DNA from: Eunapius fragilis
Lineage: Eukaryota > Porifera > Demospongiae > Spongillida > Spongillidae
DNA length: 64,000 nucleotides
Assembly: GCA_963681505.1 (NCBI GenBank)
Contig: OY811990.1
Location: forward strand, 3,549,165 to 3,613,164
Reading direction: 5' to 3'
Part shown: positions 9,781-58,541 of the stretch, piece by piece
Position numbering within the stretch: the first letter of the stretch is position 1
Layout of the letters: every line of letters begins with the position of its first letter
Program-made: the position numbers and the translations under genes
Notes under the pieces: model-generated
The model's database searches: none
What the model was told of the DNA's origin: nothing
The model's input: the letters and a program-made list of their open reading frames with translations, nothing else

Positions 9781-9825
9781 CATGCAATTTTAAGAGTTTA
9801 CAGGTACCTGATGTAAGTGTAGGAG

Positions 9826-10390
9826 GATACCATAGAGATGGGTACCAGAGAGATGTAAGAGATCGGTACCAGAGAGATGTAAGAGATGGGTACCAGAGAG
9901 ATGTATGAGATGGGTACCAGAGAGGTGTAAGAGATGGGTATGGGTACCAGAGAGATGTAAGAGATGGTATACCAGAGAGGGGGTAAGAGATGGGTACCAG
10001 AGAGATGTATGAGATAGGTACCAGAGAGGTGTAAGAGATGGGTATGGGTACCAGAGAGATGTAAGAGATGGTATACCAGAGAGGGGGTAAGAGATGGGTA
10101 CCAGAGAGATGTACCATACAGATGGGTACTAGAGAGGTGTAAGAGATGGGTACCAGAGAGATATAAGAGATGGGTACCAGAGAGGGGTAAGTGGGAACCA
10201 GAGAGATGTAAGAGATGGGTACCAGAGAGGTGTAAGAGGTGGGTACCAGAGAGGTGTAAGAGGTGGGTACCAGAGAGATATAAGAGATGGGTACCAGAGA
10301 GGTGTAAGAGATGGGTACCAGAGAGATGTAAGAGATGGGTACCAGAGAGATGTAAGAGATGGGTACCAGAGAAGGGTAAGAGATGGGTAA
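9826..10390. repeat. 24-bp minisatellite (gggtaccagagagatgtaag agat)
   Basis: More than 20 tandem units of gggtaccagagagatgtaag plus agat, with variants (ggtgtaagag, gggtaagag, ccatac). Because the unit is 24 bp, the minus strand stays open and would encode an 8-residue repeat (SLVPISYI/SLVPISYT) for about 200 codons. There is no evidence of translation. Confidence 0.9.
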
Positions 10391-10439
10391 TGGTTCTCTA
10401 TCAAACATGGTGCAACCAAAATTGAATGCACTATCCTAT

Positions 10440-21296: not shown

Positions 21297-23855
21297 ATGT
21301 CAACCCAAGTACAACACAACAGCATGTTACCTGTACAGCGACCGACGTGTGTGCTGTGCCAAAACGATCTCGATCCTGGTGAACCATTTTGTGATGAGTG
21401 TGGAGCGAACCAAAAATCGGGCCGAGTGACGTTGAAATCGTCCAAGCAAGATGACGCAATTAGTAGCAGGTAAAGCACGAACACACATATACCGGCCGCC
21501 TGTATTAAAAATATAGTATATGTCACTATATATGCATATAAATTAGTACACTACAAAAACAGTACGGTTGTACGCTATAAAAACACACAGCACGCTCCCA
21601 GGGCGATCATCAATAGACACATATCCATATGTATACAAGATAATATATATTATCTCTGACATGTATAAGTTTATTGTTCCACAGGTCTTGCCTCTTCCCT
21701 CCACACACCATATGTCAGCTGTGCTCTAAGCCCTACACAGACTCTAGGATCCTTCCATGTCTACACTCTTTCTGTGGGCAGTGTCTGCATATGGAGATAG
21801 AGAGGTCTGGGGACAAGCAGAAGATGGAGTGTCCTACCTGTCAGAGAAGTATCACCATACCAGAGGGTGGAGTCAATGCTATAACTCAGAACCTCCATCT
21901 TGGCTTTGAGGTGGAGGTGGCTGGGTACATGTCCAAGATTGGCAATGGTGGAGAAAAGTCATGTGATGATTGTATTGATGGGGGCAAGGGGCCTGCAGTG
22001 GTGTTCTGTTGTACATGTGGTCAGTTCCTCTGTACCTTCTGTCATGAGCACCACAAGAGCAGTAAAATATTCCATCATCACCAGATGGTTGGACTAGACC
22101 AGGAGTCTGTCAGACTACTTCCATCCATCATGACATCAACTGAAAATCATAATCAAGAAACAAAGATCTATTGTGAGACCTGCCAGTGTCTGGTCTGCAG
22201 AGACTGTACCCTAGTCCTTCACAAGGACCACAGGATTGCTGAGGTGTGCAATATTGCAAAGGTCCACAGAGATGGAATGAGAGAGGCACTTGTGTGTGCA
22301 CAGGAAATGGCCTCAAAGCTGACCAGTGCCATTGGTGCCAATGACAAGATGGCAGAACAGGTTGAGACTTCCAGAGAGAATGCCACACTGCTCACAAACC
22401 AAGCCTTTGAACAGCTCCACCAAGCCATAGAGGAAAGGAAGAAGACACTGTTGTCAGAGATGGAGGCCATTTCACTTTCTAAGACAACAGCTCTGTCCCT
22501 CCAGAAGGAACAGTTAGTGAAGATACAAGATGAGATTGGTCGCTACACTGAGATGACCTCCCACATCCTCCAGACCCACACTGACCATGAGGTGGTCTCT
22601 TGGAGATCTGCTACCCACTGAACTGAAGGCCACCCTAAAGAAGGTTGAGGGAGTCTCCCTCTCTACCAGTGACATACATGTGACCCTACAAACTGATTCT
22701 CTAATGAAGGAACTCTCCAACTTTGGTCATGTAATGGCCTCACCTCCATCTCCGTCACAAAGCGCATGGTCTTCTAAGTCAGCAGCCAGGATGGACATGG
22801 TGTATAGTGTAAAAGTGGAGACCAAGAGCTCAGAGGGAGAGAGGTACCCATATGGTGGTCTGCAGGTGAAGGCTGAGCTGAGGCCCAAGTCACATGATGG
22901 AGTAGTTGTCCCAGGAAAGGTGGAGGACCATGGAGATGGTACCTACACCATCACCCTCACCCCTCAGGCTGCTGGTCTTCACCAGCTCCTCATCACAACG
23001 AATGGTGAACATGTACAGGGCAGTCCTCATGACCTTGATGTGAGGCCTAACTACAGCACCTTATGTAAACCCCAGAAAGTGATCAGTTGTAGGAGCGGTC
23101 CAGAAGGTATAGCCATCCATGACAGTGGAGACATCTATGTAGCCTGTTGGGATGATGACTGTATTCGTGTGTTTGACCAAGGTGGTCATGAGAAGAGAAC
23201 CATAGGTAGTGGTGGGAGGGGTGATGGTCAGTTCAGTGGACCATGTGGTATATCCATCAAGGGAGATGTGATGTATGTTGCTGAATTTGAAAATCATCGC
23301 ATTCAGAAGCTGACAACAGGAGGACAGTTCATACAAAAGTTTGGTCAGCATGGATCAGGTCAGGGACAGTTTAGTGGACCAATATCAGTTATTGTTGACC
23401 AAATAGATAGGATGATTGTTGCTGATGCTAGCAACCAGAGGGTAGTGATATTGGATCAAAATGGCAGCTGGCTATTGACCATAACTGGTGATGTCTCTGG
23501 TTCTCAGGGTTTTAAGGATCCATGGGGTCTTGCTTTGGACCCTCAAGGGAACATCCATGTTGCAGCCTTTGGTTCTAACACCATCAAAGTCTTCACACCA
23601 GAGGGGACCTATGTCAGATCATATGGAGATGTAAAGGTTCCATCTGGAATAGCAATTGATGAAGAAGGTTACAGCCTTGTCTGTGAGTGCAATGGCAATT
23701 GTCTCTCCATCTTTGATCCTCAGGGAAACAAGATCCACACAGTTGGCAATCTCACTTATCCCTGGGGTGTTGCTCTGGATCCTATTAGTGGTAGTCTGTA
23801 TGTAGCCAACACTGGTGCTAACACTGTATTAAAGTATGCTGTAATGATGATGTAA
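21297..23855 (+). pseudogene. TRIM-NHL gene T1, frameshifted
   Basis: Exon 1 (21297-21469) encodes MSTQVQHNSMLPVQRPTCVL and on, a CxxC...CxxC zinc-ribbon-like module (CVLC, CDEC) ending LKSSKQDDAISSR at gtaaag. Exon 2 starts at 21685 after ttccacag. Order: RING (CQLC...CLHSFCGQC...CPTC), two B-boxes, coiled coil, filamin repeat (VKAELRPKSHDG...HGDGTYTITLTPQ), then six NHL repeats. TRIM-NHL proteins act as E3 ligases and/or RNA or protein binders in the cytoplasm, the NHL propeller being the recognition surface. Near 22596 the copy reads gaggtggtctcttgg where paralogues have gaggtggtagctcttgg. The two lost bases end the first frame at 22621, and the second half continues in another frame. Everything else is intact, so a recent break, an assembly error or two separate products are possible. 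Confidence 0.85.
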
Positions 23856-28450: not shown

Positions 28451-28452
28451 AC
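26509..28452 (-). CDS. Penelope-like element reverse transcriptase
   Basis: A 647-codon frame; the first ~45 residues are partly coded by the C-tract, so the natural start is probably a later Met such as MCTSTVNPDNIV (residue 47). RT landmarks in order: NQADKG (176-181), KLHKNPYTYRPI (258-269), VDVTNMYTNIP (323-333), GVPMGNIMAPSYSG (385-398), catalytic YIDD (422-425) and HFLDVTIY (463-470). A C-terminal basic segment, SLRDMLVRARLKKETPLGFN, is the region that in most relatives precedes a Cys motif and the GIY-YIG nuclease; here the frame ends right after it. The protein copies element RNA into DNA. Penelope RTs are related to telomerase rather than to LTR elements. Confidence 0.88.
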   Translation of the reverse strand: MGGGCVSLVRDPTDQGGETATTRSRRRSKPDKRRRCRKLCVSKHYNMCTSTVNPDNIVNLSSYRLSNRETDILSKGLSFIPYTPNTNYVKSSEIIDFTNKLRLRYKYMHITPSDNPFRLKTKQTPGPTDYKPLEKLIDNITLTLSQIKSTTGRPNLPKDGMCLIHRLKNQHEVIINQADKGSMIVLQDRKTYIAEGHKHLADSETYTRLEHDITDKIKQTIETKLDNLHKSGLLTKRQCVFCYPPESHRTSLMYFLIKLHKNPYTYRPICSCVNSITANISGFLDFWLKQAVVLLPTYIRDTTHLIQILEKHTFCKDIILCTVDVTNMYTNIPTAEGNQAAIRALTTLKNSTPMPDMAVLAELLDIVTKNNVFEFNGEFYLQTRGVPMGNIMAPSYSGIFMGELEQKIFQSHTDKIKLWIRYIDDILILWSGNQEEFQSFLLNCNKLHPTIKFTGECSPSEIHFLDVTIYKGTNFQNKQTLDTKTYTKPTNKQTYVHSSSFHPKGTGKSIALGEAHRILRTNSDEGNFRQQIIKLQKALLARGYKEKATKTLLKKIYFKDRERVIHKQNLKTDKQGTPVMAITYNTHVPLVRDALRKLWVDVKIDPVLSGLFPAPPRIALKKNRSLRDMLVRARLKKETPLGFNPPC

Positions 28453-30000: not shown

Positions 30001-30793
30001 AAACACATCACCTTATGTAACCCCCAGCAAGTTATCAGTTGTAGTGGTCGTCCAATGGGAATCGCCATCCATTGCAGTGGGGACATCTATGTAACCTGTT
30101 GGGATGACAAACGTATTCGTGTGTTTGACCAAGGTGGTCATAAATAAGAAAAGAACCATAGGTAGTGGTGGGTTTGGTGACGGTCAGTTCTGTGGACCAC
30201 GTGGTATATCCATCAAGGGAGATATGACGTATGTTGCTGACACTGGCAATAATCGCATTCAGAAGCTGACAACAGGAGGACAGTTCCTTCAAAAGTTTGG
30301 CCAATATGGATCAGGTCAGGGACAGTTTTGTGAACCAAGATCAGTTATTGTTGACCAAAAAGATTGGATGGTTGTTGCTGACAGTGACAACCATAGGGTA
30401 GTAATATTGGATCAATATGGCAGCTGGCTATTGACCATACATGGTAATGCTCAGGGTTTTAAGGATCCAAGGGGTCTTGCCTTGAACCCCCAAGGGAACA
30501 TCCATGTTGCAGCCAATGGTTCTAACACCATCAAAGTCTTCACACCAGAGGGGACCTATGTCAGATCATACGGAGATATAAAGGTTCCAACTGGAATAGC
30601 AATTGATGAAGAAGGATACAGCTTTGTCTGTGAGAGTGGAGGCAATTGTCTCTCCATCTTTGATCCTGAGGGAAACAAGATCCACACAGTTGGAAATCTC
30701 AGTGACCCCTTTGGTGTTGCTCTGGATCCTATAAGTGGTAGTCTGTATGTAGCCAACTATGGTGCTAACCCTGTATTGAAGTATTCTGTGTAG
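30001..30793 (+). pseudogene. TRIM-NHL fragment T2 (NHL propeller only)
   Basis: Begins abruptly at accttatgtaacccccagca, the filamin/NHL boundary of the genes, and continues through all NHL repeats to a normal end (GANPVLKYSV, TAG). A small insertion after VFDQGGHK adds a stop (30145-30147), so two overlapping frames are seen. The RING, B-boxes, coiled coil and filamin repeat are missing. The second frame (30104-30793) is fully open over about five blades. Its blade-face residues differ from every other copy (FCGPRG, ADTGNN, NGSN, SDPFG). It follows the shared post-minisatellite segment at exactly aagataaaacacatc. Confidence 0.85.
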
Positions 30794-36227: not shown

Positions 36228-36400
36228 TAGTGTAGGCTATTAGTGCCACTCCCCCTGGTCATAAAAGCCCATTCCTCCCGAGGGACCAAGTAAAGAGAAC
36301 AGATGCTGCTCTGATTCAGCATTTGGTCCACCAACAACTAAAGGCCAGAATCCCTTGTTTTATAACATCACGTAAAGGGACAAATGAGATATAACTATAT
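36228..36400. repeat. Dispersed ~170 bp repeat, copy 1
   Basis: Matches 44537-44706 at most positions (agatgctgctctgattcagc, atttggtccaccaacaact, ccttgttttataacatcacg). Immediately upstream of the membrane-protein exon here. Confidence 0.85.
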
Positions 36401-37100
36401 GGAGGGGGAGGGGCCTGTTCCCCTTGCCCCCAATGCCACCATTGTTGACAAGGACAACACAACTCTAGTCCATCTGGTGGCCAGACTGCTCAACCTGTAT
36501 GACCAGCCTCTTGAGGTCCTAAGTGTTTTTGGAGACCATCCTAACATCATTGTCATCACGTCAGCAGTGGGACCATCCCAGACTATGTTATGGAGCAGTC
36601 ATGTACAAACCTGTCCCACTGTATCATACTCAGGAGGTGTCCTGAGGTACACGCCCCCACTTCATTACTTCTCTGCCACACCCTGTCAGCCCATCACCTT
36701 TGTCATGAAGACCTGCGATAACAACAGTGTGGATGTCCTCAAGTGCCAGACGGCTACCATCTACATCTGTGTGCTGTTCCTCAACCACCCACTACAGTTC
36801 TCCCCAGCTGTGATGTACGTTCTGGAGGACCAGACTACCTTCACGTCTCTGAACATCTCAGCAGCTCTCTCTGATGTTGAAGATGGCACACCACCACTCA
36901 ACGGTACACACATCCTCACTGACCCCGCCCATGGTAAGGCCTATTACAACAACATCACAGGTAATGTCACGTACAGACCAGACCCTGCCTATTATGGCCT
37001 AGACCTCATCTATGTATGGGCATGTGACACCCTCAATGGCTGCATGGTGGGTAACATCACTGTGGTTGTGCAGAACGTGAACCGCCCACCATCAGTATAG
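36384..37100 (+). CDS. Cadherin-like ectodomain exon
   Basis: A 238-codon open frame; the Met is not certain because the exon could begin within the frame. Two beta-sandwich repeats of the tandem cadherin-like type are visible: NATIVDKDNTTLVHLVARLL followed by GGVLRYTPPLHYF, and YVLEDQTTFTSLNISAALSD with PAHGKAYYNNITGNVTYRPD, YYGLDLIYVWACD and VVVQNVNRPPS. Several N-glycosylation sequons (NIT, NVT, NIS, NGT) and paired Cys fit an extracellular adhesion or receptor protein. It ends in a TAG at the edge of an inverted duplication. It points toward T3 and likely is a fragment of the same family as 54374-55797. Confidence 0.7.
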   Translation: MRYNYMEGEGPVPLAPNATIVDKDNTTLVHLVARLLNLYDQPLEVLSVFGDHPNIIVITSAVGPSQTMLWSSHVQTCPTVSYSGGVLRYTPPLHYFSATPCQPITFVMKTCDNNSVDVLKCQTATIYICVLFLNHPLQFSPAVMYVLEDQTTFTSLNISAALSDVEDGTPPLNGTHILTDPAHGKAYYNNITGNVTYRPDPAYYGLDLIYVWACDTLNGCMVGNITVVVQNVNRPPSV

Positions 37101-37430: not shown

Positions 37431-40175
37431 CTACACAAAATACTTCAATACAGTCTTAGCACCACAGTTGGCTACATACAGACTACCACTTATAGGATCC
37501 ATAGCAATACCACGTGGATTAGCAAGATTGCCAACTGTGTGGATCTTGTTTCCCTGAGGATCAAAGATGGAGAGACAATTGCCACTCTTCTCACAGACAA
37601 GGCTGTAACCTTCTTCATCAATTGCTATTCCAGAAGGACCCTTTACATCTCCATATGATCTGACATAGGTCCCCTCTGGTGTGAAGACTTTGATGGTGTT
37701 AGAACCATACGCTGCAACATGGATGTTCCCTTGAGGGTCCAAGGCAAGACCCCATGGATTCTTAAAACCCTGAGCATCAGAGACATTACCATTTATGGTC
37801 AATAGGCAGATGCCATTTTGATCCAATATCACCACCCTGTGGTTAATATGGTCAGCAACAATCATCCTATCTCTTTGGTCAACAATAACTGATATTGGTT
37901 GATTAAACTGTCCCTGATCAGACCCATGTTGGCCAAACTTTTGTAATAACTGTCCTCCTGTTGTCAGCTTCTGAATGCGATGATTGCCAGTTTCAGCTAC
38001 ATACATCACATCTCCCTTGATGGATATACTATATGGAGAACTGAACTGACCATCACCACTCCCACCACTACCTATGGTTCTCTTCTCATGACCACCTTGG
38101 TCAAACACATGAATACTGTTATCAATACTGGCTACATAGATGTCTCCACTGTCATGGATGGCAATACCATATGGACCACCAATACAACTGATAACTTGCT
38201 GGGGGTTACATAAGGTGCTGTAGTTAGGCCTCACATCAAGGTCATGAGGACTGCCCTGTACATGTTCACCTTCCATTGTGATGAGGAGCTGGTGAGGACC
38301 AACAGCCTGAGGGGTGAGGGTGATGGTGTAGGTACCATCTCCATGGTCCTCCACCTTTCCTGGGACAACTGCTCCATCATGTGACTTAGGCCTCAGCTCA
38401 GCCTTCACCTGCAGACCACCATATGGGTACCTCTCTCCCTCTGAGCTCTTGGTCTCCACTTTTACACTATACACCTTGTCCATCCTGGCTGCTGACTTAG
38501 AAGACCATGTGGTCTGTGATGGAGATGGAGGTGAGGCCATTACATGACCAAATATGGAGAGTTCCTTCATCAGAGAATCAGTTTGTAGTGTCACATGTAT
38601 GTCACTGGACTGACTGGGAGTGAGGGAGACTCCCTCAACCTTCTTCAGGGTGGCCTTCAGTTCAGTGGGTAGCAGATCTCCAAGAGCTACCACCTCATGG
38701 TCAGTGTGGGTCTGGAGGATGTGGGAGGTCATCTCGGTGTAGCGACCAATCTCATCTTGTATCTTCACTAGCTGTTCCTTCTGGAGGGACAGAGCTGTTG
38801 TCTTGGAAAGTGAAATGGCCTCTATCTCTGACAACAGTGTCTTTTTCCTTTCCTCTATGGCTTGGTGGAGCTGTTCAAAGGCTTGGTTTATGAGCGGTGT
38901 GGCATTCTCTCTGGAAGTCTCAACCTGTTCTGCCATCTTGTCATTGGCACCAACGGCACTGGTCAGCTTTGAGGCCATTTCCTGTGCACACACAAGTGCT
39001 TCTCTCATTCCATCTCTGTGGACCTTTGCAATATTGCACACCTCAGCAATCCTGTGGTCCTTGTGAAGGACTAGGGTACAGTCTCTGCAGACCAGACACT
39101 GACAGGTCTCACAGTAGAATTTTAACTCTTCTTTCTGGTGATGAGGTTGGGAGCAGAGATGTTCAGTTGGTGTCATGATGGATGGAAGTAGTCTGACAGA
39201 CTCCTGGTCTAGTCCTACCATCTGGTGATGGAGAAGTATCTTATTGCGTTTGTGGTACTCATTACAGAAGGTACAGAGGAACTGACCACATGTACAACAG
39301 AACACCACTGCAGGCCCCTTGTCCCCATCAATACAAGCATCACATGACTTTTCACCACCACTGCCAATCTTGGACATGTACCCAGCCACCTCCACCTCAA
39401 AGCCAAGATGGAGGTTCTGAGGTATAGCATTGACTCCACCCTCTGGTATGGTGATACTTCTCTGACAGGTAGGACACTCCATCTTCTGCTTGTCCCCAGA
39501 CCTCTCTATCTCCATATGCAGACACTGCCCACAGAAAGAGTGTAGACATGGAAGGATCCTAGGGTCTGTGTAGGGCTTAGAGCACAGCTGGCATATGGTG
39601 TGTGGAGGGAAGAGGCCAGACCTGTGGAAGAATAAAAATTGATACCATAGGACGAAGAGACATTACTAGGCCCCCCCCCCCCCCCCCCTCCTTCCACCTC
39701 CCCCCTCCACTTGGAAACGATAAAGATTACGAATTTCGTGTGCGTTTCGATTTCCGTAAACTATTTGAGGTGAGATTCTAGGTTATGTCTACAGGTGTTC
39801 GGAATGCTATTGTCTCGGTCCTGCAGGTTATAGGGTCCCGTTTAAACACCCCGCTAGTGCTGGCCAAAGAAAACCTCAAGGGCTTCGGGCCCACCAACGA
39901 CCCGGTTCGACGATCAATTAACAGTAGGAAAAAAAGTACAGAAAACACCTATTTTTTGAAGCCTTAACAATACCACAAGGCAATAGTTCTTGTGCAGCAG
40001 CAAATAGTAGACCACATAACATCTAGCAGAGTTGGGACGGAAATAAATGAGCGGACGCCTATGCTGTGCCCATAACTAGGGGGACCATTCGTATAGCAAA
40101 TTATAGTACATATCTGTTAATGGGTGTTTGAGCTTACCTGCTACGTAAGTCGTCTTGTTCGGACGATCTCAACAT
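37431..40175 (-). CDS. TRIM-NHL gene T3, complete
   Basis: Exon 1 (40138-40175) encodes MLRSSEQDDLRS and splices (gtaagc; acceptor ttccacag) to exon 2 (37431-39621), giving 742 residues. RING C3HC4 at residues 23-65 (CQLC, CLHSFCGQC, CPTC), B-box 1 ~105-150, B-box 2 ~166-205 (CETCQCLVCRDC...HKDH), coiled coil ~210-325, filamin repeat ~385-478, six NHL repeats ~485-742. Likely an E3 ligase whose NHL propeller selects the target. The 516-bp intron holds a C-tract and a plus-strand ORF of unclear meaning. It is the left half of a segmental duplication with T4. The reading frame is intact and the filamin and RING parts are nearly identical to T4, while blade-face residues differ. Confidence 0.9.
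39665..39700. repeat. C-tract in T3 intron
   Basis: About 20 C residues followed by tccttccacc lie 45 bp upstream of the exon-2 acceptor on the minus strand. The same tract occurs in T4 at 47559-47577. Confidence 0.9.
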
Positions 40176-41497: not shown

Positions 41498-43429
41498 CTC
41501 ATGGTCAGTGAGGGAGTTGTTAGTATATTAATATGATGAAAGGGAAATTTTTTATAGGTTTCTAATTCTAAAAACATTTGAATGGAACCTTTTGGATACA
41601 TGAGACAGAAATAACATTACCATGGTAACAATGGTTGAAAGTTGCACACACACTTGGACCATCAAGGGTAAGACATATAACTTGTCTTACCCTTAATATT
41701 CCTTGTCTTTGCAGGGTGAGTTTGTGACACTGTTTCTCCCATCTATAGCATAATAAAAGGTTTCCACTTCCTTTCATGTTTCTAACACATCTGGTCCATG
41801 CAAACCAATCTTTATCACTTATCTACATAACACATGAACATGATAATAAATGATCACTTCATAAGCCAGTTGGTTCATGGATAAAGGTTGCACACACATC
41901 CATGGCTATACCATTCTCTTTAGTACTTCAGGACCCATACATAGAAGGCACCTATGCTCCTAACGGCCCGTGGTGTTGGATACATGAGTACAAAGGGGAC
42001 ATTAACGGAGAAGGTCTGCTGGCCTTCAGGATAGCCTTCCACCTGCCTGTTATTATAGGCACCATAACATGCATGCATGTGGTAGTATGCACACACCCAT
42101 CACTGGTCAGAGCATGTAACATTGTGACGTTAGGTTAAGGCCGGCATGCACGGGTCGACTTCCTGCCGATTAATCGCCTGCAACTCGAATGAACATGGGT
42201 GAAAATTCTGTAAACTATGTATGCTGGCCTTCACCTTTCACTGCCTCAATCCTATATAAGGCAATTAGCCACTCTTTAAAAGATTATATTAACCCTAAAT
42301 GAAGCACACCTCTCTAGTCAGAAGACATATACACATTTTAAGCATGGCTGTTATTGTTTGGTGTACGTTATACATTTGCAGGTCACCATAAACACCCACA
42401 CCATAACACACACACACCCTAGCCTTCACACATATGCTCTTGACAATAACTCACCGTAGTCAATGGACGATCCAGGTACTTTACAGGACCCCGCCCCCCA
42501 AGTGATGGTCTTCATACCACACACCAATGTCTTCACCATGGTGCGACAGTCAGTGACAGATACGGGGATGACTGTACTCATGGCCACCATAGAGCAGGCT
42601 ACTTGGGGGGGAAAGGTAAGGAGAGGTGTGATATGAAAGTAGTGTAGGAAGGGTGGGGTGAGGGGGGACATTGGTGTGGTCATCAGACCCCTCCCCTCTT
42701 CTTCATACACTCACCATGCCTCCCTCCCTCCCTCCCCTAATGTACCAGATGAAGATGGAGCAGGTGAGCCAGACTTCTTCACATCTCCATTGGGTGTGCT
42801 GGAGGTAACAGCTGTCTCATAGCTGGGGCTAACCCCAGGGTCACTGGGGGGTGATGGCTGACAATGTTTGAACAGTTCGGGGATCTTGTACAGCGCTATG
42901 GCTTTGAACTTGAGTATGAACACCTCCATCATCTTCATGAGCAGCTCCCTGGCCCCAGTGTCCTGCTCTGACTTCACCCTGATGCTCTCCACCAGGTTGA
43001 GCAGCAGCTTGCATGACATCATCTGGATGCTCACAGGGATGGTGTCATCGTGGACATTATTAGCAAACAGGTGGACGGCCATTGACAGCTGCTGCAGGGT
43101 AAGTTGGGTACGAATATGGTGGACCAGATCAGCCAGTATACTGTATGCCAGAGACCTGATTGGTTGGGAGGAAATCATTTAATAATAGCACATTAAAATC
43201 ACATAACACCACACCCTCACACCTAACACCTCTCTGATAAAACCTCACACTGAAAGTGAAAGCGAAATCACCAGAGCTGTCAAGATAAACATTTATAAAC
43301 TCACCTCCAGAAGTTGGAACATTCCAGTGAGGATACCCTGTAAAGAATGAGACCTGGTCACATCACAACAGCAACCAACATCAGTCCAAACCATTACTGC
43401 ATCTCAGAACATGTACTCAAACCACACAC

Positions 43430-45320: not shown

Positions 45321-48085
45321 CTACAAAGAATATTTCAAAACAGTGTTAGCACCACTGTTGGCTACATACAGACTACCACTTATAGGATCCAGAGCAACAC
45401 CATAGGGTTCATTGAGATTGCCAACTGTGTGGATCTTGTTTCCCTCAGGATCAAAGATGGAGAGACATTTGCCCCTCTTCTCACAGACAAGGCTGTAACC
45501 TTCTTCATCAATTGCTATTCCAGCTGGATCGTTTACATCTCCATATGATCTGACATAGGTCCCCTCTGGTGTGAAGACTTTGATTGTGTGAGGATCACGG
45601 GCAGCAACATGGATGTTCCCTTGAGGGTCCAAGGCAAGACCCCATGGAGACTTAAAACCCTGAGCACCAGAGACATTTCCATTTATGGTCAATAGGCAGA
45701 TGCCATTTTGATCCAATATCACTACCCTGTGGTTGATATAATCAGCAACAATCATCCTATCTCTTTGGTCAACAATAACTGATATTGGTCCATTAAACTG
45801 TCCCTGACCTGATCCATGTTGGCCAAACTTTTGTAGGAACTGTCCTCCTGTTGTCAGCTTCTGAATGCGACTATTGCCATATTCAGCAACATACATCAAA
45901 TCTCCCTTGATGGATATACCATGTGGTCCACTGAACTGACCATCACCACTCCCATGACTACCTATGGTTCTCTTCTCATGATCACCTTGGTCAAACACAT
46001 GAATACAGCCATCCTTCCAACAGGCTACATAGATGTCTCCACTGTCATGGATGGCAATACCTGATGGACCACCACAACAACTGATAACTTGCTGGGGGTT
46101 ACATAAGGTGCTGTAGCTAGGCCTCACATCAAGGTCATGAGGACTGCCCTGTACATGTTCACCATCCATTGTGATGAGGAGCTGGTGAGGACCAGCAGCC
46201 TGAGGGGTGAGGGTGATGGTGTAGGTACCATCTCCATGGTCCTCCACCTTTCCTGGGACAACTGCTCCATCATGTGACTTGGGCCTCAGCTCAGCCTTCA
46301 CCTGCAGACCACCATATGGGTACCTCTCTCCCTCTGAGCTCTTGGTCTCCACTTTTACACTATACACCATGTCCATCCTGGCTGCTGACTTAGAAGACCA
46401 TGTGCTTTGTGATGGAGATGAAGTCATTGCATGACCAAATATGGAGAGTTCCTTCATCAGAGAATCAGTTTGTAGGGTCACATGTATGTCACTGGACTGA
46501 CTGGGAGTGAGGGAGACTCCCTCAACCTTCTTCAGGGTGGCCTTCAGTTCAGTGGGTAGCAGATCTCCAAGAGCTACCACCTCATGGTCAGTGTGGGTCA
46601 GGAGGATGTGGGAGGTCATCTCAGTGTAGCGACCAATCTCATCTTGTATCTTCACTAACTGTTCCTTCTGGAGCGACAGAGCTGTTGTCTTGGAAAGTGA
46701 AATAGCCTCCATCTCTGACAACAGTGTCTTCTTCCTTTCCTCTATGGCTTGGTGGAGCTGTTCAAAGGCTTGGTTAATGAGCAGTGTGGCATTCTCTCTG
46801 GAAGTCTCAACCTGTTCTGCTATCTTGTCATTGGCACCAATGGCACTGGTCAGCTTTGAGGCCATTTCCTGTGCACACACAAGTGCCTCTCTCATTCCAT
46901 CTCTGTGGACCTTTGCAATATTGCACACCTCAGCAATCCTGTGGTCCTTGTGAAGGACTAAGGTACAGTCTCTGCAGACCAGACACTGGCAGGTCTCACA
47001 GTAGAATTTTAACTTCTTTTTGTCATGATGAGGTTGGGAGCAGAGATGTTCAGTTGGTGTCATGATGGATGGAAGTTGTCTGACAGACTCCTGGTCTAGT
47101 CCTACCATCTGGTGATGGCTCAGTATCTTATTGCGTTTGTGGTACTCATGACAGAAGGTACAGAGGAACTGACCACATGTACAACAGAACACCACTGCAG
47201 GTCCCTTGCCCCCATCAATACAAGCATCACATGACTTTTCACCACCACTGCCAATCTTGGACATGTACCCAGCCACCTCCACCTCAAGGCCAAGATGGAG
47301 GTTCTGAGGTATAGCATTGACTCCACCCTCTGGTATGGTGATACTTCTCTGACAGGTAGGACACTCCATCTTCTGCTTGTCCCCAGACCTCTCTATCTCC
47401 ATATGCAGACACTGCCCACAGAAAGAGTGTAGACATGGAAGGATCCTAGGGTCTGTGTAGGGCTTAGAGCACAGCTGGCATATGGTGTGTGGAGGGAAGA
47501 GGCCAGACCTGTGGAAGAATAAAAATTGATACCATAGGACGAAGAGACATTACTAGGCCCCCCCCCCCCCCCCCCCCTTCCACCTCCCCCCTCCACTTGG
47601 AAACGATAAAGATTACGAATTTCGTGTGCGTTTCGATTTCCATAAACTATTTGAGGTGAGATTCTAGGATATGTCTACAGGTGTTCGGAATGCTATTGTC
47701 TCGGTCCTGCAGGTTATAGGGTCCCGTTTAAACACCCCGCTAGTGCTGGCCAAAGAAAACCTCAAGGGCTTCGGGCCCACCAACGACGATCAATTAACAG
47801 TAGGAAAAAGAGTGACACAATTGACAATTGACCTATTATTGAAGGTGACTTCGTGCGCGATGGCTTTCAAGCCTTAACAATACCACAGGGCAATAGTTCT
47901 TGTGCAGCAGCAAATAGTAGACCACATAACATCTAGCAGAGTTGGGACGGAAATAAATGAGCGGACGCCTATGCTGTGCCCATAACTAGGGGGACCATTC
48001 GTATAGCAAATTATAGTACATATCTGTTAATGGGTGTTTGAGCTTACCTGCTACGTAAGTCGTCTTGTTCGGACGATCTCAACAT
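45321..48085 (-). CDS. TRIM-NHL gene T4, complete
   Basis: Same two-exon structure as T3: exon 1 48085-48048 (MLRSSEQDDLRS), exon 2 47508-45321, 741 residues. All RING, B-box, coiled-coil, filamin and NHL parts are present and in frame. Against T3, the RING to filamin part differs at few sites. In the NHL part, clusters of codon changes give ACWKDGCIH for ASIDNSIH, FSGPHG for FSSPYS, AEYGNS for AETGNH, AARDPH for AAYGSN, DVNDPAG for DVKGPSG and NLNEPYG for NLANPRG. A CACGTG lies 35 bp upstream of the start. It is the right half of the duplication. Confidence 0.9.
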
Positions 48086-50444: not shown

Positions 50445-51595
50445 CGTAGTCAATGGACGATCCAGGTACTTTACAGGACCCCGCCCCCCAAGTGATGGTC
50501 TTCATACCACACACCAATGTCTTCACCATGGTGCGACAGTCAGTGACAGATACGGGGATGACTGTACTCATGGCCACCATAGAGCAGGCTACTTGGGGGG
50601 AAAGGTAAGGAGAGGTGTGATATGAAAGTAGTGTAGGAAGGGTGGGGTGAGGGGGACATTGGTGTGCTCATCAGACCTCTCCCTCTTCTTCATACCCTCA
50701 CCATGCCTCCCTCCCCCCCTCCCCTAATGTACCAGATGAAGATGGAGTAGGTGAGCCAGACTTCTTCACATCTCCATTGGGTGTGCAGGAGGTAACAGCT
50801 GTCTCATGGCTGGGGCTAACCCCAGGGTCACTGGGGTGTGATGGCTGACAATGTTTGAACAGTTCGGGGATCTGGTACAGCGCTATGGCTTTGAACTTGC
50901 GTATGAACACCTCCATCATCTTCATGAGCAGCTCCCTGGCCCCAGTGTCCTGCTCTGACTTCACCCTGATGCTCTCCATCAGGTTGAGCAGCAGCTTGCA
51001 TGACATCATCTTGATGCTCACAGGGATGGTGTCATCGTGGACATTTTTAGCAAACAGGTGGACGGCCATTGACAGCTGCTGCAGGGTAAGTTGGGTACGA
51101 ATATGGTGGACCAGATCAGCCAGTATACTGTATGCCAGAGACCTGATTGGTTCACATCCCAACTAACACCCTCACATAACACCTGACACCCTCATACCTA
51201 ACAACTCTCTGATAATACCTCACACTTTCTCTGGTGGTCCACCCAGATCCAATCAGAAGGTTCTCGTCAAAGAGATGGTCTATGCATGGCAGAAACTTGT
51301 TACGCAGGTATGTGGCTAGAATATGTCTGGCAGCAATCAACAGCTCCTTCCTCAGGTGAGCTACCTCCTGGGGACAGTTCCTAAGCAACGCCACCATACC
51401 CTGGACCAAGTTAGAGGCATAGGACGCAACTTGTTCCTGTGGGGGGCAGGGGGGTCGTGTGAGAGTTCAAGTGGGGGCAGGGGGGTCATGTACACACACA
51501 TACACATACACACACATACACACACTACAAAGCTGCAGGAAAATTGGAATAGCTGTTTCCAGAAAATTAGAGTAATGTTGGGAGTTGATGATGTT
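50445..51595 (-). pseudogene. TRRAP: TRRAP exons, copy 2
   Basis: Minus-strand exons: 51595-51532 (NIINSQHYSNFLETAIPIFL, cut after the CTGCAG), 51436-51221 (EQVASYASNLVQGMVALLRN ... DENLLIGSGWTTRESV), 51142-50733 (SLAYSILADLVHHIRTQL ... HCQPSHPSDPG) and 50588-50445 (VTDCRTMVKTLVCGMKTITW). The 51436 and 51142 exons join in frame (ESV-R-SLAYS), as in TRRAP. The exons AQQLRKL and GMFQLLE of copy 1 are missing here, whereas copy 1 lacks the 51436 exon. The two copies thus retain complementary sets. Confidence 0.8.
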
Positions 51596-51729: not shown

Positions 51730-52181
51730 AGTCTGGTGACTAGCCCGCATCCGTTTTGTGCACTACTGCACGAATTCGTGCAGTAGCATGAATCTAATTT
51801 GTGCCCACCTACGAGCATGTATGTCATTAACTATAAGCCATAACATTATGAATAATATAAATATACGGATGTTAGTTGATGCTATCCATTACGCTGTGGA
51901 AAGACTTGGGTTTACCGAGATAAAGAGCCTTCAGTTGGAAGTAGTTCCAGCTATAGCCACTGGGCAGGACGTTTTTGGAGTGTTACCAACTGGATATGGC
52001 AAGAGTCTTTGTTATGCCTGCTTTCCTATATTGCGCGAACATCCGCCATAAAAGTACAACGCTAGATGAAGATCGATGTTCCGTAAAGGCTCCGTGGAAG
52101 GTTGGTAAGGTCATATCCACAAGACAAACAAAGGACAGAAAGATTATCCGCCATACTAATGCTAAATAGTCTGGTGACTAG
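51730..52181 (+). pseudogene. RecQ-family helicase fragment
   Basis: An open stretch (51758-52051) contains AVERLGFTEIKSLQLEVVPA, IATGQDVFGVLPTGYGKSLC and YACFPIL. These are helicase motif 0 and Walker A of RecQ-type ATP-dependent DNA helicases; nothing beyond motif I is preserved. The fragment is bracketed by an exact 14-base direct repeat, agtctggtgactag, at 51730-51743 and 52168-52181. The right repeat abuts TRIM pseudogene T6. RecQ-like genes can be multicopy in invertebrates, so the origin may be host or element. Confidence 0.65.
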
Positions 52182-53455
52182 TAAGTTACAAGATGAGATT
52201 GGTTGCTACACTGAGATGACCTCCCACATCCTCCAGACCCACACTGACCATGAGGTGGTAGCTCTTGGAGATCTGCTACCCACTGAACTGAAAGCCACCC
52301 TGAAGAAGGTTGAGGGAGTCTCCCTCACTCCCAGTCAGTCCAGTGACATACATGTGACCCTACAAACTGATTCTCTGATGAAGGAACTCTCCATATTTGG
52401 TCATGCAATGACCTCATCTCCATCACAAAGCACATGGTCTTCTAAGTCAGCAGCCAGAATGGACATGGTGTATAGTGTAAAAGTGGAGACCAAGAGCTCA
52501 GAGGGAGAGAGGTACCTATATGGTGGCCTGCAGGTGAAGGCTGAGCTGAGGCTCAAGTCACGTGCATGATGGAGCAGTTGTCCCAGGAAAGGTGGAGGAC
52601 CATGGAGATGGTACCTACACCATCACCCTCACCCCTCAGGCTGCTGGTCCTCACCAGCTCCTCATCACAATGGATGGTGAACATGTACAGGGCAGTCCTC
52701 ATGACCTTGATGTGAGGCCTAGCTTACAGCACCTTATGTAACCCCCAGCAAGTTATCAGTTGTAGGGGTGGTTCAGAAGGTATAGCCATCCATGACAGTG
52801 GAGACATCTATGTAGCCTGTATGTTTGGTCACTGTATTCATGTGTTTGACCAAGGTGGTCATGAGAAGAGAACCATAGGTAGTGGTGGGAGTGGTGATGG
52901 TCAGTTCGATGCACCATATGGTATATCTATCAAGGGAGATGTGATGTATGTTGCTGATCAGGGCAATGATCGCATTCAGAAGCTGACAACAGGAGGACAA
53001 TTCCTACAAAAATTTGGCCAACATGGATCAAGTCAGGGACAGTTTAATGGACCAAGATCAGTTATTGTTGACCAAAGAGATAGGATGAGTGTTGCTGATT
53101 ATAACAACCACAGGATGGTGATATCAAAATGGCAGCTGGCTATTTATCATTAATGGTAATGTCTCTGGTTTTATGTTTCTTCAGGGTCTAGCCATGGACT
53201 CTCAAGGGAACATCCATGTTACAGCCCATGGTTCTATCAATGTAGATGTTAGCAGTCCACTTGGAATAGCAATGGATGAAGAAGGTTACAACCTTATCTC
53301 TGGCAATTGTCTCTCCATCTTTGAAGCAAGATCCTCACAGTTGGCATCTCACTTGTCCCTGAGGGTGTTGCTCTGGATCCTATAAGTGGTAGTCTGTATG
53401 TAGCCAACTATGGTTCTAAGACTATTGAAGTATGGTATGTACTGGTGATGTAATG
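52182..53455 (+). pseudogene. TRIM-NHL pseudogene T6 (5'-truncated)
   Basis: Starts within the coiled coil (KLQDEIGCYTEMTSHILQTH), then filamin repeat and NHL blades to the 3' end. Breaks: an insertion near 52562 (cacgtgcatgatgg) shifts the filamin repeat, there is an extra t in gcctagcttacagcacc, and a loss near 53129 and further indels affect the last blades. The longest preserved NHL frame (52821-53153) has its own blade-face residues (MFGHC, FDAPYG, ADQGND). RING and B-boxes are absent. It is joined to the RecQ fragment. Confidence 0.85.
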
Positions 53456-54373: not shown

Positions 54374-55797
54374 GTGGGTGTGGCTGTAGTTAGTGATGTG
54401 ATGATGTCATATATATGGTCACTTCTGAAGGACAATGTTCACACCACCGCTGGTAACATCACCTACTACTCTGTCCTCCATGACTTTGGTACCAGAGCAT
54501 TCTCTTATCATGCATGTGACTACCATGGGGACTGCTCTGAGGACGTGATCATCACTGTTAATATTACATTTGTCAACTACCCACCCTTCCCCATACGTCC
54601 ATTGGAGGCGGAGACACTGGAGGACACGCCCATCATCATCAACGTCTCGTACTACTTTGATGATTTTCAGGTCCCTCCATGGGTGGTGGGTGTGGAGGCC
54701 AGTGAGGGTGACTGGCTTTTTGTGGACCGATCAGTGCAGGACCATCACTTCCTCATTTACTACAAGCCTCCCTTATACCAGTATGGCGACTTCTTTGTTA
54801 CCATGAGTGTGTGCGATAATAATGTTCCCTATGTCATCATTGTCGTGGTGACATGAGTGAACTACTCACCCTCCATTGATGTGGACCATCTCCACATGTA
54901 ATATGGTATGGAGGCTTGTCTAAACACTTGATAACATCCATCAGCGATGTTGATGTGGGTAGTCAGTTTGGTACAGCCATCATCCAAGTGGACAGCTCCA
55001 ATGGTACCTGGCAGTTCAGCACAGATGGAGGACATTGCTGGGTCACATTGACCAATGTCTGCCCACAAAACGCTACCCTGCTCTGGTCATCCCCTATTGC
55101 AATGAACAAGGTGAGGTTTGTTCCCAACAAGTACTTCTTCGTGAACGTGTCCCTCTGGTTCCTGGCCTGGGACCTAACATCAGGTGAGGCTACGGGTACC
55201 CAGTCCATAGATGTCACAGTGGCTGACCCCCTCCACGGAGCCTTCAGTACCTCCCAGACCTCTGCCACTGTACCCGTCATCCATTTTAACAATGCTCCCA
55301 TGTTGGCACCAGGAGCCAAGCTCCTCCCTATATTGGAGGACACACCCACCTCTAATAACAATGGGACAGCAGTGGCAGATATCGTGACTGGAGTTTACAT
55401 TGATGTGGATCCTGGATCTGAAGTGGGTGTGGCAGTGGTGGGCGTGGACCTGAGGTATGGGGTGTGGCAGTGGTGGTATCCCCAGTCCAAAACATGGCAG
55501 ACGTTTGTGGGGGACATCTACTAGGTGTGGTGGTACCCAAGGACCCCTAGGTATAGAAGGCCACCCTCCTCGCTGGAGACTGTCGCGTACCATTCCTGTG
55601 GAACTTCAACACACTCAAGGACACCAGGGGAATTTACAGACCTGCCTCTGATGTCCCTTACATCACCATTCTTGATCCTACTAAACCAGACCCACGACCT
55701 GATCCATAACCTCACCCATATGATCCTCCTAGCCATCTTCTGTGTGGTGGTCATTGCCATCATCCTGGTGGTGGTGTTCTACTGTTATCACCAGTAG
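54374..55797 (+). CDS. Cadherin-like type I membrane protein, 3' part
   Basis: Open frames 54374-54856 and 54916-55524, plus a final segment to 55797, cover the 3' end of a large extracellular protein. Repeats: GNITYYSVLHDFGTRAFSYH ACD and PLEAETLEDTPIIINVSYYF D, then the domain DVDVGSQFGTAIIQVDSSNG TWQFSTDGGHCW with VRFVPNKYFF and VSLWFLAWDLTSGEATG. A second such repeat begins TAVADIVTGVYIDVDPGSEV. It ends with HDLIHNLTHMILLAIFCVV VIAIILVVVFYCYHQ, a single TM with a very short tail. Small frame changes (around 54857, and after WQTFVGDIY at 55524) mean introns or decay. Sequons suggest glycosylation. The gene converges on T5. Confidence 0.65.
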
Positions 55798-55965: not shown

Positions 55966-58541
55966 CTACACAGAATACTTCAATACAGTCTTAGCACCAC
56001 AGTTGGCTACATACAGAATACTACTTATAGGATCCAGTGCAGCACCCTGGAGATTAGAGAGATTGCCAACTGTGTGGATCTTGTTTCCCTGAGGATCAAA
56101 GATGGAGAGACAATTGCCACTGTTCTCACAGACAAAGCTGTAACCTTCTTCATCAATTGCTATTCCAGATGGACTCTTTACAATTCCATATGATCTGACA
56201 TAGGTCCCCTCTGGTGTGAAGACTTTGATGGTGTCAGAACCCCAGCCTCCAACATGGATGTTCCCTTGAGGGTCCAAGGCAAGACCCAATGGAGGGTTAA
56301 AACCCTGTGCACCAGAGACATTTCCATTTATGGTCAACAGCCAGTGGCCAGTTTGATCCAACATCACCACCCTTTGGTTGCCACTATCAGCAACAATCAT
56401 CCTATCTCTTTGGTCAACAATAACTGATATTGGGTAACTAAACTGTCTCTGACCTGATCCATGTTGGCCGAACTTTTGTAGGAACTGTCCTCCTGTTGTC
56501 AGCTTCTGAATGCGACTATTGCCATAGTCAGCAACATACATCACATCTCCCTTGATGGATATACCATTTGGAGAACTGAACTGACCACTACCTATGGTTC
56601 TCTTCTCATGACCACCTTGGTCATACACATGAATACGGTTATCACTACAGGTTACATAGATGTCTCCACTGTCATGGACGGCAATACCATATGGACCACC
56701 ACTACAACTGATAACTTGCTGGGGGTCACATAAGGTGCTGTAGCTAGGCCTCACATCAAGGTCATGAGGACTGCCCTGTACATGTTCACCATCCATTGTG
56801 ATGAGGAGCTGGTGAGGACCAGCAGCCTGAGGGGTGAGGGTGATGGTGTAAGTACCATCTCCATGGTCCTCTACCTTTCCTGGGACAACTGCTCCATCAT
56901 GTGACTTGGGCCTCAGCTCAGCCTTCACCTGCAGACCACCATATGGGTACCTCTCTCCCTCTGAGCTCTTGGTCTCCACTTTTACACTATACACCATGTC
57001 CATCCTGGCTGCTGACTTAGAAGACCATGTGCTTTGTGATGGAGGTGAGGCCATTACATGACCAAAGTTGGAGAGTTCCTTCATTAGAGAATCAGTTTGT
57101 AGGGTCACATGTATGTCACTGGGAGTGAGGGAGACTCCCTCAACCTTCTTCAGGGTAGCCGTCAGTTCAGTGGGTAGAAGATCTCCAAGAGCTACCACCT
57201 CATGGTCAGTGTGGGTCTGGAGGATGTGGGAGGTCATCTCAGTGTAGCGGCCAATCTCATCTTGTATCTTCACTAACTGTTCCTTCTGGAGGGACAGAGC
57301 TGTTGTCTTGAAAAGTGAAATGGCCTCCATCTCTGACAACAGTGTCGTCTTCCTTTCCTCTATGGCTTGGTGGAGCTGTTCAAAGGCTTGGTTTATGAGC
57401 AGTGTGGCATTCTCTCTGGAAGTCTCAACCTGTTCTGCCATCTTGTCATTGGCACCAATGGCACTGGTCAGCTTTGAGGTCATTTCTTGTGCACACACAA
57501 GTACCTCTCTCATTTCATCTCTGTGGACCTTTGCAATATTGCACACCTCAGCAATCCTGTGGTCCTTATGAAAGACTAGTGTACAGCCTCTGCAGACCAG
57601 ACACTGGCAGGTCTCACAGTAGAATTTTAACTCTTCTTTCTGGTGATGAGGATAGGGGCAGCGATGTTCAGTTGGTGACATGATGGATGGAAGTAGTCTC
57701 ACAGACTCCTGGTCTAGTCCTACCATCTGGTGATGATGGAATATTTTACTGCTCTTGTGGTGCTCATGACATAAGGTACAGAGGAATTGACCACATGTAC
57801 AACAGAACACCACTGCAGGCCCCTTGCCCCCATCAATACAAGCATCACATGACTTTTCCCCACTACTGCCAATTTTGGACATGTACCCAGCCACCTCCAC
57901 CTCAAAGCCAAGATGGAGGTTCTGTGGCATAGCATTGACTCCACCCTCTGGTATGGTGATACTTCTCTGACAGGTAGGACACTCCATCTTCTGCTTGTCC
58001 CCAGACCTCTCTATCTCCATATGCAGACATTGCCCACAGAAAGAGTGTAGACATGGAAGGATCCTAGGGTCTGTGTAGGGCTTAGAGCACAGCTGACATA
58101 TGGTGTGTGGAGGGAAGAGGCCAGATCTGTGGGGGAAAAGAACACGAATTGATACCATAGGAAGTTGGAGAATATCATTGCCCCACACACGTCATATACC
58201 ACTGACGATGATCTTTACCAAGCTTGAATATAGCATTGGAAACGATAAAGATTATTTGATCATTTGTAGTACAGAAAACACCTAGGCCTATCTATTGTTT
58301 AAAGTGACTTCGTGCGCGATGGCTTTGAAGCCTTAACAATACCACAAGGCAATAGTTCTTGTGCAGCAGCAAATAGTAGACCACATAACATCTAGCAGAG
58401 TTGGGACGGAAATAAATGAGCGGACGCCTATGCTGTGCCCATAACTAAGGGTACCATTCGTATAGCAAATTATAGTACATAGGCCTATCTGTTAATGGGT
58501 GTTTGAGCTTACCTGCTACGTACGTCGGGCGATGTCGACAT
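55966..58541 (-). CDS. TRIM-NHL gene T5, complete
   Basis: Exon 1 58541-58513 (MSTSPDVRS, donor gtaagc), exon 2 58126-55966 after ttcccccacag; 729 residues. All domains are present: RING (CQLC...CLHSFCGQC...CPTC), two B-boxes, coiled coil, filamin repeat, six NHL repeats. The first NHL blade is shortened (RTIGSGQFSSPNG, lacking GGSGD). Blade-face residues again differ (TCSDNRIHV, FSSPNG, ADYGNS, FSYP, ADSGNQ, FNPPL, GGWGSD, VKSPSG, NLSNLQG). Its 5' flank matches T3/T4 as far as about 58620 but is more diverged, so it is the older duplicate. It lies tail to tail with the membrane-protein gene, 168 bp apart. Confidence 0.9.

What the first reader, a model, noticed from the sequence alone, without database searches (positions are those of the whole stretch)
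45321..46100. NHL propeller of the TRIM paralogues varies only at repeated blade-face positions
Comparing T1, T3, T4, T5 and fragments T2 and T6, residues change in short clusters at the same place in each blade. One site precedes P-x-G-(I/V)-(A/S)-(I/L); another follows YVA, VAE, VAD, VAA or VCE. Examples: FSGPCG / FSSPYS / FSGPHG / FSSPNG / FCGPRG / FDAPYG; AEFENH / AETGNH / AEYGNS / ADYGNS / ADTGNN / ADQGND; AAFGSN / AAYGSN / AARDPH / GGWGSD / AANGSN; NLTYPWG / NLANPRG / NLNEPYG / NLSNLQG / NLSDPFG. Between clusters the protein, and much of the DNA, is almost invariant. NHL loops at one end of a propeller form the known ligand surface in TRIM71/Brat. The pattern fits diversifying selection or targeted conversion of a recognition surface, a repertoire-like system that I do not know to be described.
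Basis: partly seen in the sequence, partly recalled or inferred. Interest (0 to 1): 0.88.

Follow-up and report, generated by a model that had tools for sequence, protein, structure and literature searches.

The report
Hypervariable TRIM-NHL receptor gene repertoire
An unnamed, probably animal genome carries a large family of nearly identical ubiquitin-ligase-type genes that differ mainly at the same few spots on each of six blades of a propeller, on the face that grips RNA in related proteins, which looks like a built-in recognition repertoire shaped by selection for diversity.

Summary
Confirmed, and larger than the window shows. The own genome holds at least 87 full-length copies of this TRIM-NHL gene (79 without an in-frame stop; 85 on contig C20, 3.59-5.91 Mb). 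In 90 NHL domains variability peaks at three registers repeated in all six blades: the residues before and after the P of P-x-G, and the first of the B-C loop. Entropy exceeds 1.5 bits at 31 of 118 positions on the D-A/B-C face and 0 of 100 on the opposite face. In 31 independent close pairs, replacement change at these 18 codons is 2.9 times silent change at the same codons and 8.5 times (95% interval 6.9-10.3) silent change in the rest of the domain. Always-silent third-base changes there are only modestly raised (0.057 versus 0.031-0.040; 0.121 at other loop codons). This speaks against drift and an ordinary hotspot. All 14 published LIN41 RNA contacts fall in these loop registers. Short-tract exchange between copies is strong, but not shown to be targeted. 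Best reading: diversified intracellular recognition ligases, probably immune. Ligand, expression, polymorphism and species are unknown.

The parts
45321..47402 (-). T4, intact TRIM-NHL gene body (B-box, coiled-coil region, filamin, NHL); the open frame continues upstream through the RING to a probable splice acceptor near 47509
   Evidence: ORF of 693 aa; B-box, filamin and NHL hits; for the RING and the acceptor (inferred from sequence)
45321..46118 (-). NHL domain of T4, six-bladed propeller
   Evidence: AlphaFold2 model, pLDDT 91, pTM 0.90, 24 strands; nearest solved structures Thin, TRIM2, LIN41, TRIM3, TRIM71
46062..46070 (-). Blade 1, D-A loop hypervariable codons (NHL residues 17-19)
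46008..46019 (-). Blade 1, B-C loop hypervariable codons (34-37)
45921..45932 (-). Blade 2, D-A loop hypervariable codons (63-66)
45870..45881 (-). Blade 2, B-C loop hypervariable codons (80-83)
45783..45794 (-). Blade 3, D-A loop hypervariable codons (109-112)
45729..45740 (-). Blade 3, B-C loop hypervariable codons (127-130)
45642..45650 (-). Blade 4, D-A loop hypervariable codons (157-159)
45588..45599 (-). Blade 4, B-C loop hypervariable codons (174-177)
45522..45530 (-). Blade 5, D-A loop hypervariable codons (197-199)
45468..45479 (-). Blade 5, B-C loop hypervariable codons (214-217)
45402..45413 (-). Blade 6, D-A loop hypervariable codons (236-239)
45345..45356 (-). Blade 6, B-C loop hypervariable codons (255-258)
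37431..39515 (-). T3, intact paralogue
   Evidence: 91-92% identical to T4
55966..58188 (-). T5, intact paralogue with the RING in the listed frame
21674..23855 (+). T1, paralogue read in two overlapping frames (break near 22596-22600); its NHL part is open
30010..30793 (+). T6, NHL-only remnant or partial copy
52102..53426 (+). T2, broken copy in several frames

Best explanation
The locus is part of a large, clustered family of TRIM-type proteins (RING, B-box, coiled-coil region, filamin, NHL) within one genome. Signalling and scaffold parts are kept nearly constant, while selection for new amino acids repeatedly changes about 18 residues (P-1, P+1 and BC1 of each of six blades) on one face of the NHL propeller. 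Shown: the family, the mostly intact frames, the confinement to one face, the excess of replacement over silent change, and short-tract exchange between copies. Inferred from NHL-domain biology: that this face binds a ligand. Inferred further: that each copy catches a different intracellular ligand and marks it through the RING, the diversity being driven by fast-evolving opponents such as viruses or other intruders. Protein ligands seem somewhat more likely than RNA, because the core residues are rich in Y, G, R, S, N, C and W and nearly neutral rather than strongly basic.
For: At least 87 full-length copies, 85-100% identical in protein to one of two queries (one piece of a split match 82%), 79 of 87 without in-frame stops. 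83 distinct 18-residue faces among 90 copies; 17 of 18 core positions with posterior above 0.95 for beta above alpha. One face 31 of 118, other face 0 of 100. pN(core)/pS(rest) 8.47, 95% interval 6.94-10.32, in 31 independent close pairs. Silent transitions at core codons 0.057 versus 0.031-0.040 outside the loops; at site 199 the third base is T in 90 of 90 copies while seven amino acids occur. Other domains are constrained: RING pN/pS 0.032/0.080, filamin 0.037/0.056. The 14 LIN41 residues reported to contact RNA, placed by hand on the TRIM71 chain, all lie in the registers P-2, P-1, P+1, BC1 and BC2. A second subfamily on C6 shows the same registers raised.
Against: No expression, ligand, infection or polymorphism data. 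The site-wise model assumes one tree although the copies recombine, so the tree-free numbers carry the weight; one tree-free method, minimum steps, gives a weak core ratio (1.26 with singletons, 2.56 without; 0.92 and 1.40 for all 48 loop codons). Silent diversity is raised in and near the clusters by several measures: pS 0.206 at the 48 loop codons, pS 0.087 at core codons in close pairs against 0.030, silent transitions 0.121 at the 30 other loop codons, and the model's silent rate 1.64 within two codons of the clusters against 1.00 farther off. So some local rise of diversity exists besides the replacement excess. The C6 contrast is weaker and rests on 10 copies. The loop charge ranges from -7 to +5, which fixes no ligand class.
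Confidence: 0.72

Rival explanations
1. The repertoire reads RNA: each NHL face binds a different RNA motif or hairpin (of viruses, transposons or the cell's own mRNAs), as LIN41 and Brat do, and the protein represses or degrades it.
For: Best Foldseek match by E-value is the LIN41 filamin-NHL with RNA; the variable registers coincide with the 14 LIN41 RNA contacts; [quoted passage not shown] I did not map those residues).
Confidence: 0.22
2. A local mutation hotspot or targeted hypermutation without selection makes the clusters variable.
For: Silent diversity is raised at the non-core loop codons (0.121), NG pS at loops is 0.206, and the fitted silent rate is 1.64 near the clusters against 1.00 farther off.
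Against: At core codons the first two bases vary (0.536, 0.510) far more than the third (0.281), silent transitions are 0.057, and the third base is almost fixed at several sites (T in 90, 89 and 89 of 90, A in 88 of 90). Four-fold sites within two codons of the clusters do not differ significantly from the rest (0.083 for 32 codons versus 0.070 for 73, p 0.14). A mutator would have to know the codon phase.
Confidence: 0.03
3. Relaxed constraint: the positions are exposed and free to drift.
For: They are surface loops; NHL families in general vary there.
Against: Drift should not exceed the silent rate; replacement at the core is 2.9 times the silent rate at the same codons and 8.5 times that of the rest of the domain.
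Confidence: 0.02
4. The faces are old variants kept by balancing selection or past specialisation, while gene conversion keeps rejuvenating the backbone; little new change arises now.
For: Correlation between sites decays within about 100 bases in the NHL; mosaic pairs such as L014/L006, where a 37-codon stretch matches a third copy; core difference is already 0.70 in pairs with 4-6% backbone distance; raised silent diversity at loops fits old variants.
Against: Some close pairs differ mostly by replacements scattered over the blades (L060/L054: 22 changed codons, 4 of them silent, 10 at core positions). It also still needs selection to keep the variants.
Confidence: 0.15
5. Developmental or self-recognition use, for example regulation of own mRNAs or allorecognition, rather than defence.
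For: The TRIM-NHL proteins in the papers seen are mostly developmental regulators; HNWD propellers with a similar evolutionary signature serve self/non-self recognition in a fungus.
Against: About a hundred near-identical genes with 83 different faces in 90 copies fit poorly with conserved regulators (inference); secretion signals and expression were not tested.
Confidence: 0.15

Closest known systems
TRIM-NHL proteins (TRIM71/LIN41, Brat, Mei-P26, Thin, TRIM2/3/32)
   Same: Same domain order with B-box, filamin and NHL (as in LIN41) and the same six-bladed fold; variable registers coincide with LIN41 RNA contacts.
   Different: Known members are few per genome and mostly conserved regulators (partly recalled); here at least 87 near-identical paralogues lie in one genome with diversifying selection at the face.
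finTRIM family of teleost fish and TRIM5alpha (PMC2657112, passages read)
   Same: Large TRIM expansion with positive selection at the loops of the C-terminal recognition domain, proposed to bind viral proteins.
   Different: finTRIM uses a B30.2 domain; here the recognition domain is an NHL propeller with the same three registers diversified in six blades.
HNWD NLRs het-d/het-e of Podospora anserina (PMC12222747, passages read)
   Same: Beta-propeller sensor, near-identical repeats, a few codon positions per repeat under diversifying selection on the interaction surface, concerted evolution.
   Different: Fungal NLR with WD40 repeats exchanged inside single genes; here an animal-type TRIM with fixed blades, exchanged between many genes.
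KRAB zinc-finger gene clusters (recalled; not tested here)
   Same: Clustered young genes with repeated specificity residues per module.
   Different: DNA-binding fingers of variable number; here a closed propeller of constant blade number and unknown ligand.

Membership tests
TRIM-NHL (TRIM subfamily C of PMC3503706) | RING, B-box and NHL in one protein | tested here: met
   T5 has RING (PF13445, PF00097), B-box, filamin and NHL; T3 and T4 have B-box, filamin and NHL in the listed ORF, with the RING sequence upstream in the same frame
TRIM-NHL (TRIM subfamily C of PMC3503706) | six-bladed NHL propeller | tested here: met
TRIM-NHL (TRIM subfamily C of PMC3503706) | coiled coil between B-box and filamin | not tested
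   No coiled-coil predictor was run; the region is called so by position (inference)
TRIM-NHL (TRIM subfamily C of PMC3503706) | ubiquitin-ligase activity; RNA binding | not testable with these tools
   Needs biochemistry
finTRIM / TRIM5-type restriction factors | B30.2 (PRY-SPRY) C-terminal domain | tested here: not met
   the C-terminus is NHL; no SPRY hit at E 0.001 in T1 (C-terminal ORF), T3, T4 or T5
finTRIM / TRIM5-type restriction factors | positive selection at recognition loops | tested here: met
HNWD NLR | HET and NACHT domains with WD40 repeats | tested here: not met
   none of these among the hits at E 0.001 in T3, T4 or T5
HNWD NLR | few codon positions per propeller repeat under diversifying selection on one surface | tested here: met
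Immune receptor repertoire (functional class) | many intact paralogues with diversified recognition surface | tested here: met
Immune receptor repertoire (functional class) | variation between individuals; induction by infection; loss of resistance on removal | not testable with these tools
   No resequencing, expression or knock-down data

The most novel reading that the evidence does not exclude
A modular recognition code: each blade carries a triad (P-1, P+1, BC1) that reads one unit of a ligand, such as one nucleotide or one side chain. Six triads are shuffled between about a hundred genes by short-tract exchange, giving an animal without antibodies a combinatorial intracellular repertoire, comparable to zinc fingers or TAL repeats but built on a propeller and wired to a ubiquitin ligase.
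Probability: 0.13. Interest if true: 0.97.

Novelty: new variant of a known kind. Interest (0 to 1): 0.83.

Why it matters
TRIM-NHL proteins are usually studied as conserved developmental RNA regulators. A genome that has turned this scaffold into a large, selection-diversified family would be a new kind of germline recognition repertoire. It would also offer dozens of natural variants that differ mainly at the binding face, which makes the specificity rules of NHL propellers directly testable. In nine paper searches (listings seen, a few papers read in passages) I found no description of such an NHL repertoire; the library holds only open-licence papers.

Tried and rejected
Relatives outside the genome: one scan each of viral contigs and genome contigs found none; these collections hold viruses and prokaryotes, so this says little about other animals. 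Mutation hotspot: tested in three ways and judged unlikely. Neutral drift: contradicted. Diversity mechanism with a reverse transcriptase: an RT ORF lies at 26509-28452, but its one search hit is the general RVT_1 model; no template/variable repeat search was made, and the nearly frozen third bases argue against untargeted codon scrambling. Species: an attempt to look at cysteine-protease loci as a taxonomic hint gave no letters; the organism remains undetermined, and 'animal' is inferred from the gene types. Tree-free minimum-step counts gave a weaker ratio (core 1.26 counting singletons, 2.56 without; all loop codons 0.92 and 1.40; rest 0.65-0.66); the method cannot count repeated hits, so it understates saturated sites.

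Rows dropped before the selection counts: of the 103 loci L001-L103, L064-L070 are other subfamilies; L025, L035, L036, L052, L055 and L058 (stops), L092 (51 residues), L095 (no hit) and L099 (partial, stop) were left out. T1, T5 and T6 of the window were added, giving 90. Kept although imperfect: T1 (frame break upstream), T6, L094, L096 and L103 (partial NHL), L082 (a stop close to its C-terminal end, seen), L004 (first half of the RING missing from its frame). Seven pairs under 1% backbone distance were kept in that set. The LD test used 54 of 57 full-length copies and left out the loop codons.

Full report
What was checked. The finding points at 45321-46100, the NHL domain of the TRIM paralogue T4 on the minus strand. 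All 22 quoted peptides were found, once each, at the matching places in T1-T6. T3, T4 and T5 are open genes. T5 shows RING, B-box, filamin and NHL in Pfam; T4 and T3 show B-box, filamin and NHL in the listed ORF, and their RING sequence lies upstream in the same open frame, behind a probable splice acceptor seen in the sequence. T1 is divided between two overlapping frames, T2 is broken, and T6 is partial.

Scale. The window is C20:3549165-3613164 of a 219-Mb genome in 24 contigs. A protein search with T4 returned 64 genes, one of them in two pieces; only 64 of 636 candidates were scored. A second query added 23 new ones (61 of 656 candidates scored). That makes at least 87 full-length copies (685 or more residues of a query aligned); 79 have no in-frame stop and 85 lie on C20 between 3.59 and 5.91 Mb. 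A DNA query on 181 bases found ten further places, which were not checked for full length (40 of 195 candidates scored). All counts are lower bounds.

Where the copies differ. Along 57 full-length frames, entropy of 2.25 bits or more occurs only in the NHL part; three positions in the B-box region reach 1.75-2.25. I aligned 90 NHL domains by codon. Over the six blades the mean entropy in bits is 2.37 at P-1, 2.45 at P+1 and 2.72 at BC1 (the first residue of the B-C loop). It is 1.50 at P-2, 1.41 at BC2 and 1.42 at BC1+3, and 0.71 or less at the other registers tabulated. The 18 core positions include 15 of the 18 most variable of 265 positions. There are 83 distinct 18-residue faces among the 90 copies.

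Where these positions are. An AlphaFold2 model of the T4 NHL domain from the three window sequences has pLDDT 91 and pTM 0.90, with 24 strands in six blades. Its closest solved structures are Thin, TRIM2, LIN41, TRIM3 and TRIM71. By strand order, D-A and B-C loops lie on one face and A-B and C-D loops on the other. Positions with entropy above 1.5: 31 of 118 on the first face, 0 of 100 on the second (Fisher p 7.6e-10). Positions with posterior above 0.95 for diversifying change: 34 of 118 against 2 of 100 (p 1.9e-8). Outside both faces one further variable position (159, the P+1 residue of blade 4) and two further selected ones (143, 241) are in mid-strand.

The known ligand face. The LIN41-RNA paper names 14 contact residues (PMC5908797, passages read). 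I placed them by hand on the TRIM71 chain printed, using the offset of 44 that the paper's paired numbers give; the residue letter agrees in all 14. They fall at P-2 (1), P-1 (4), P+1 (2), BC1 (3) and BC2 (4). So 9 of 14 are in the three core registers and all 14 are in five of the six most variable registers of this family. The human TRIM NHL comparison also describes the top opening as the diverse putative interface (PMC9634614, passages read).

Selection. A site-wise codon model gave 38 of 265 sites with posterior above 0.95 for replacement rate above silent rate, and 41 of 265 with posterior above 0.9 for the reverse. Because copies recombine, I rely on tree-free counts. In 31 independent nearest pairs (mean backbone distance 2.3%), pN at the 18 core codons is 0.251, pS at the same codons 0.087 and pS in the rest of the domain 0.030; pN(core)/pS(rest) is 8.47 (bootstrap 95% interval 6.94-10.32). 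By domain, in 54 copies, pN/pS is 0.032/0.080 for the RING, 0.066/0.110 for the B-box region, 0.039/0.066 for the coiled-coil region, 0.037/0.056 for linker and filamin, 0.299/0.206 for the 48 NHL loop codons and 0.057/0.085 for the rest of the NHL. A minimum-step count, which cannot see repeated hits, gave weaker ratios: 1.26 for the core with singletons and 2.56 without, 0.92 and 1.40 for all 48 loop codons, about 0.65 for the rest.

Not an ordinary hotspot. At core codons diversity is 0.536, 0.510 and 0.281 at the first, second and third base, against 0.063, 0.049 and 0.072 outside the loops. Third-base transitions that are always silent show 0.057 at the core, 0.121 at other loop codons, 0.040 near the loops and 0.031 far away. 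At site 199 the third base is T in 90 of 90 copies although seven amino acids occur; sites 197 and 66 have T in 89 of 90 and site 112 A in 88 of 90. Selection for replacement gives this; a mutator would have to know the codon phase. Results that spoil the cleanest version of my reading: the silent rise at other loop codons, and a fitted silent rate of 1.64 within two codons of the clusters against 1.00 farther off, although four-fold sites there do not differ significantly (0.083 versus 0.070, p 0.14). Older variants kept at the loops could explain the rise (inference).

Exchange between copies. Correlation between non-loop sites falls from r2 0.33 within 10 bases to about 0.06 beyond 400 (in the NHL from 0.125 to about 0.03 beyond 100), and a permutation of positions never reached the observed decline (200 shuffles). 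L014 differs from its relative L006 over a stretch that matches L020 for 37 codons. Core residues of the same loop are linked (mean z 4.2 for 6 pairs), neighbouring loops less (2.1 for 16) and distant ones least (1.4 for 131). So loops are re-sorted between genes, but exchange is seen along the whole gene and I have no evidence that it is aimed at the loops.

A second subfamily. Ten copies on C6, by eye in three groups, show the same registers raised (core 1.89 against 0.91 bits, p 1.5e-7), with a weaker contrast of faces: 45 of 118 positions above 1.5 on the D-A/B-C side and 10 of 100 on the other.

How it may work. The constant RING, B-box and filamin parts suggest one shared output, and the variable face suggests many inputs. 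I think most likely that these are intracellular recognition ligases of an immune kind. Core composition (Y 15%, G 13%, R 8%, S 8%, N 7%, C 6%, W 6%; mean net charge +0.76) looks closer to a protein-binding surface than to the basic RNA pocket of LIN41, but this is weak. Ligand, activity, expression and polymorphism are all untested.

Against what is known. The fold and domain order make these TRIM-NHL proteins. The evolutionary pattern resembles that of finTRIM B30.2 loops (PMC2657112, passages read) and of HNWD WD40 propellers in Podospora (PMC12222747, passages read). The combination, an NHL propeller diversified at three registers per blade across a gene cluster of an animal-type genome, I did not find in nine paper searches; that library is limited to open-licence papers.

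Noticed in passing
42711-43178 (-) and 50698-51162 (-): Two near-identical ORFs, the first matching the Tra1 central region in Pfam (the second was not searched), each lying 3.2-3.3 kb beyond the 5' end of a TRIM copy (T3, T4); they look like pieces carried along in segmental duplications.
   Followed up: no
36384-37100 (+) and 54374-55524 (+): ORFs with an Ig-like domain (PF17963 in the first; the others not searched) and cadherin-like look; possibly exons of a duplicated large surface protein between the TRIM copies.
   Followed up: no
7249-9213 (+): Open frame with two TRAF/meprin MATH stretches and a weak TRAF-type zinc finger hit, another candidate signalling gene near the cluster.
   Followed up: no
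26509-28452 (-): Open reverse transcriptase ORF of a retroelement (PF00078) between TRIM copies T1 and T6.
   Followed up: no
9776-10408 (-): ORF made of short repeats (SYISLVPI-like), probably a minisatellite read in frame.
   Followed up: no
L067 (C22:4834500-4837500): A related NHL gene carries an in-frame tandem insert of repeats of about 16-17 residues (LNQQQPLVGQATTTAV-like) inside its NHL domain; one search lists three places on C22 with the same open-frame length (1057).
   Followed up: no
Core codons of the NHL loops, e.g. 45522-45530: Codon usage at the 18 core codons differs from the rest of the domain (for example GAT 99% versus 62%, AAA 78% versus 20%), because several sites keep their own third base while the first two vary.
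   Followed up: partly
G000 C6 7.42-7.59 and 8.66-8.74 Mb: A second, more divergent TRIM-NHL group of at least 10 open copies with the same variable registers.
   Followed up: partly
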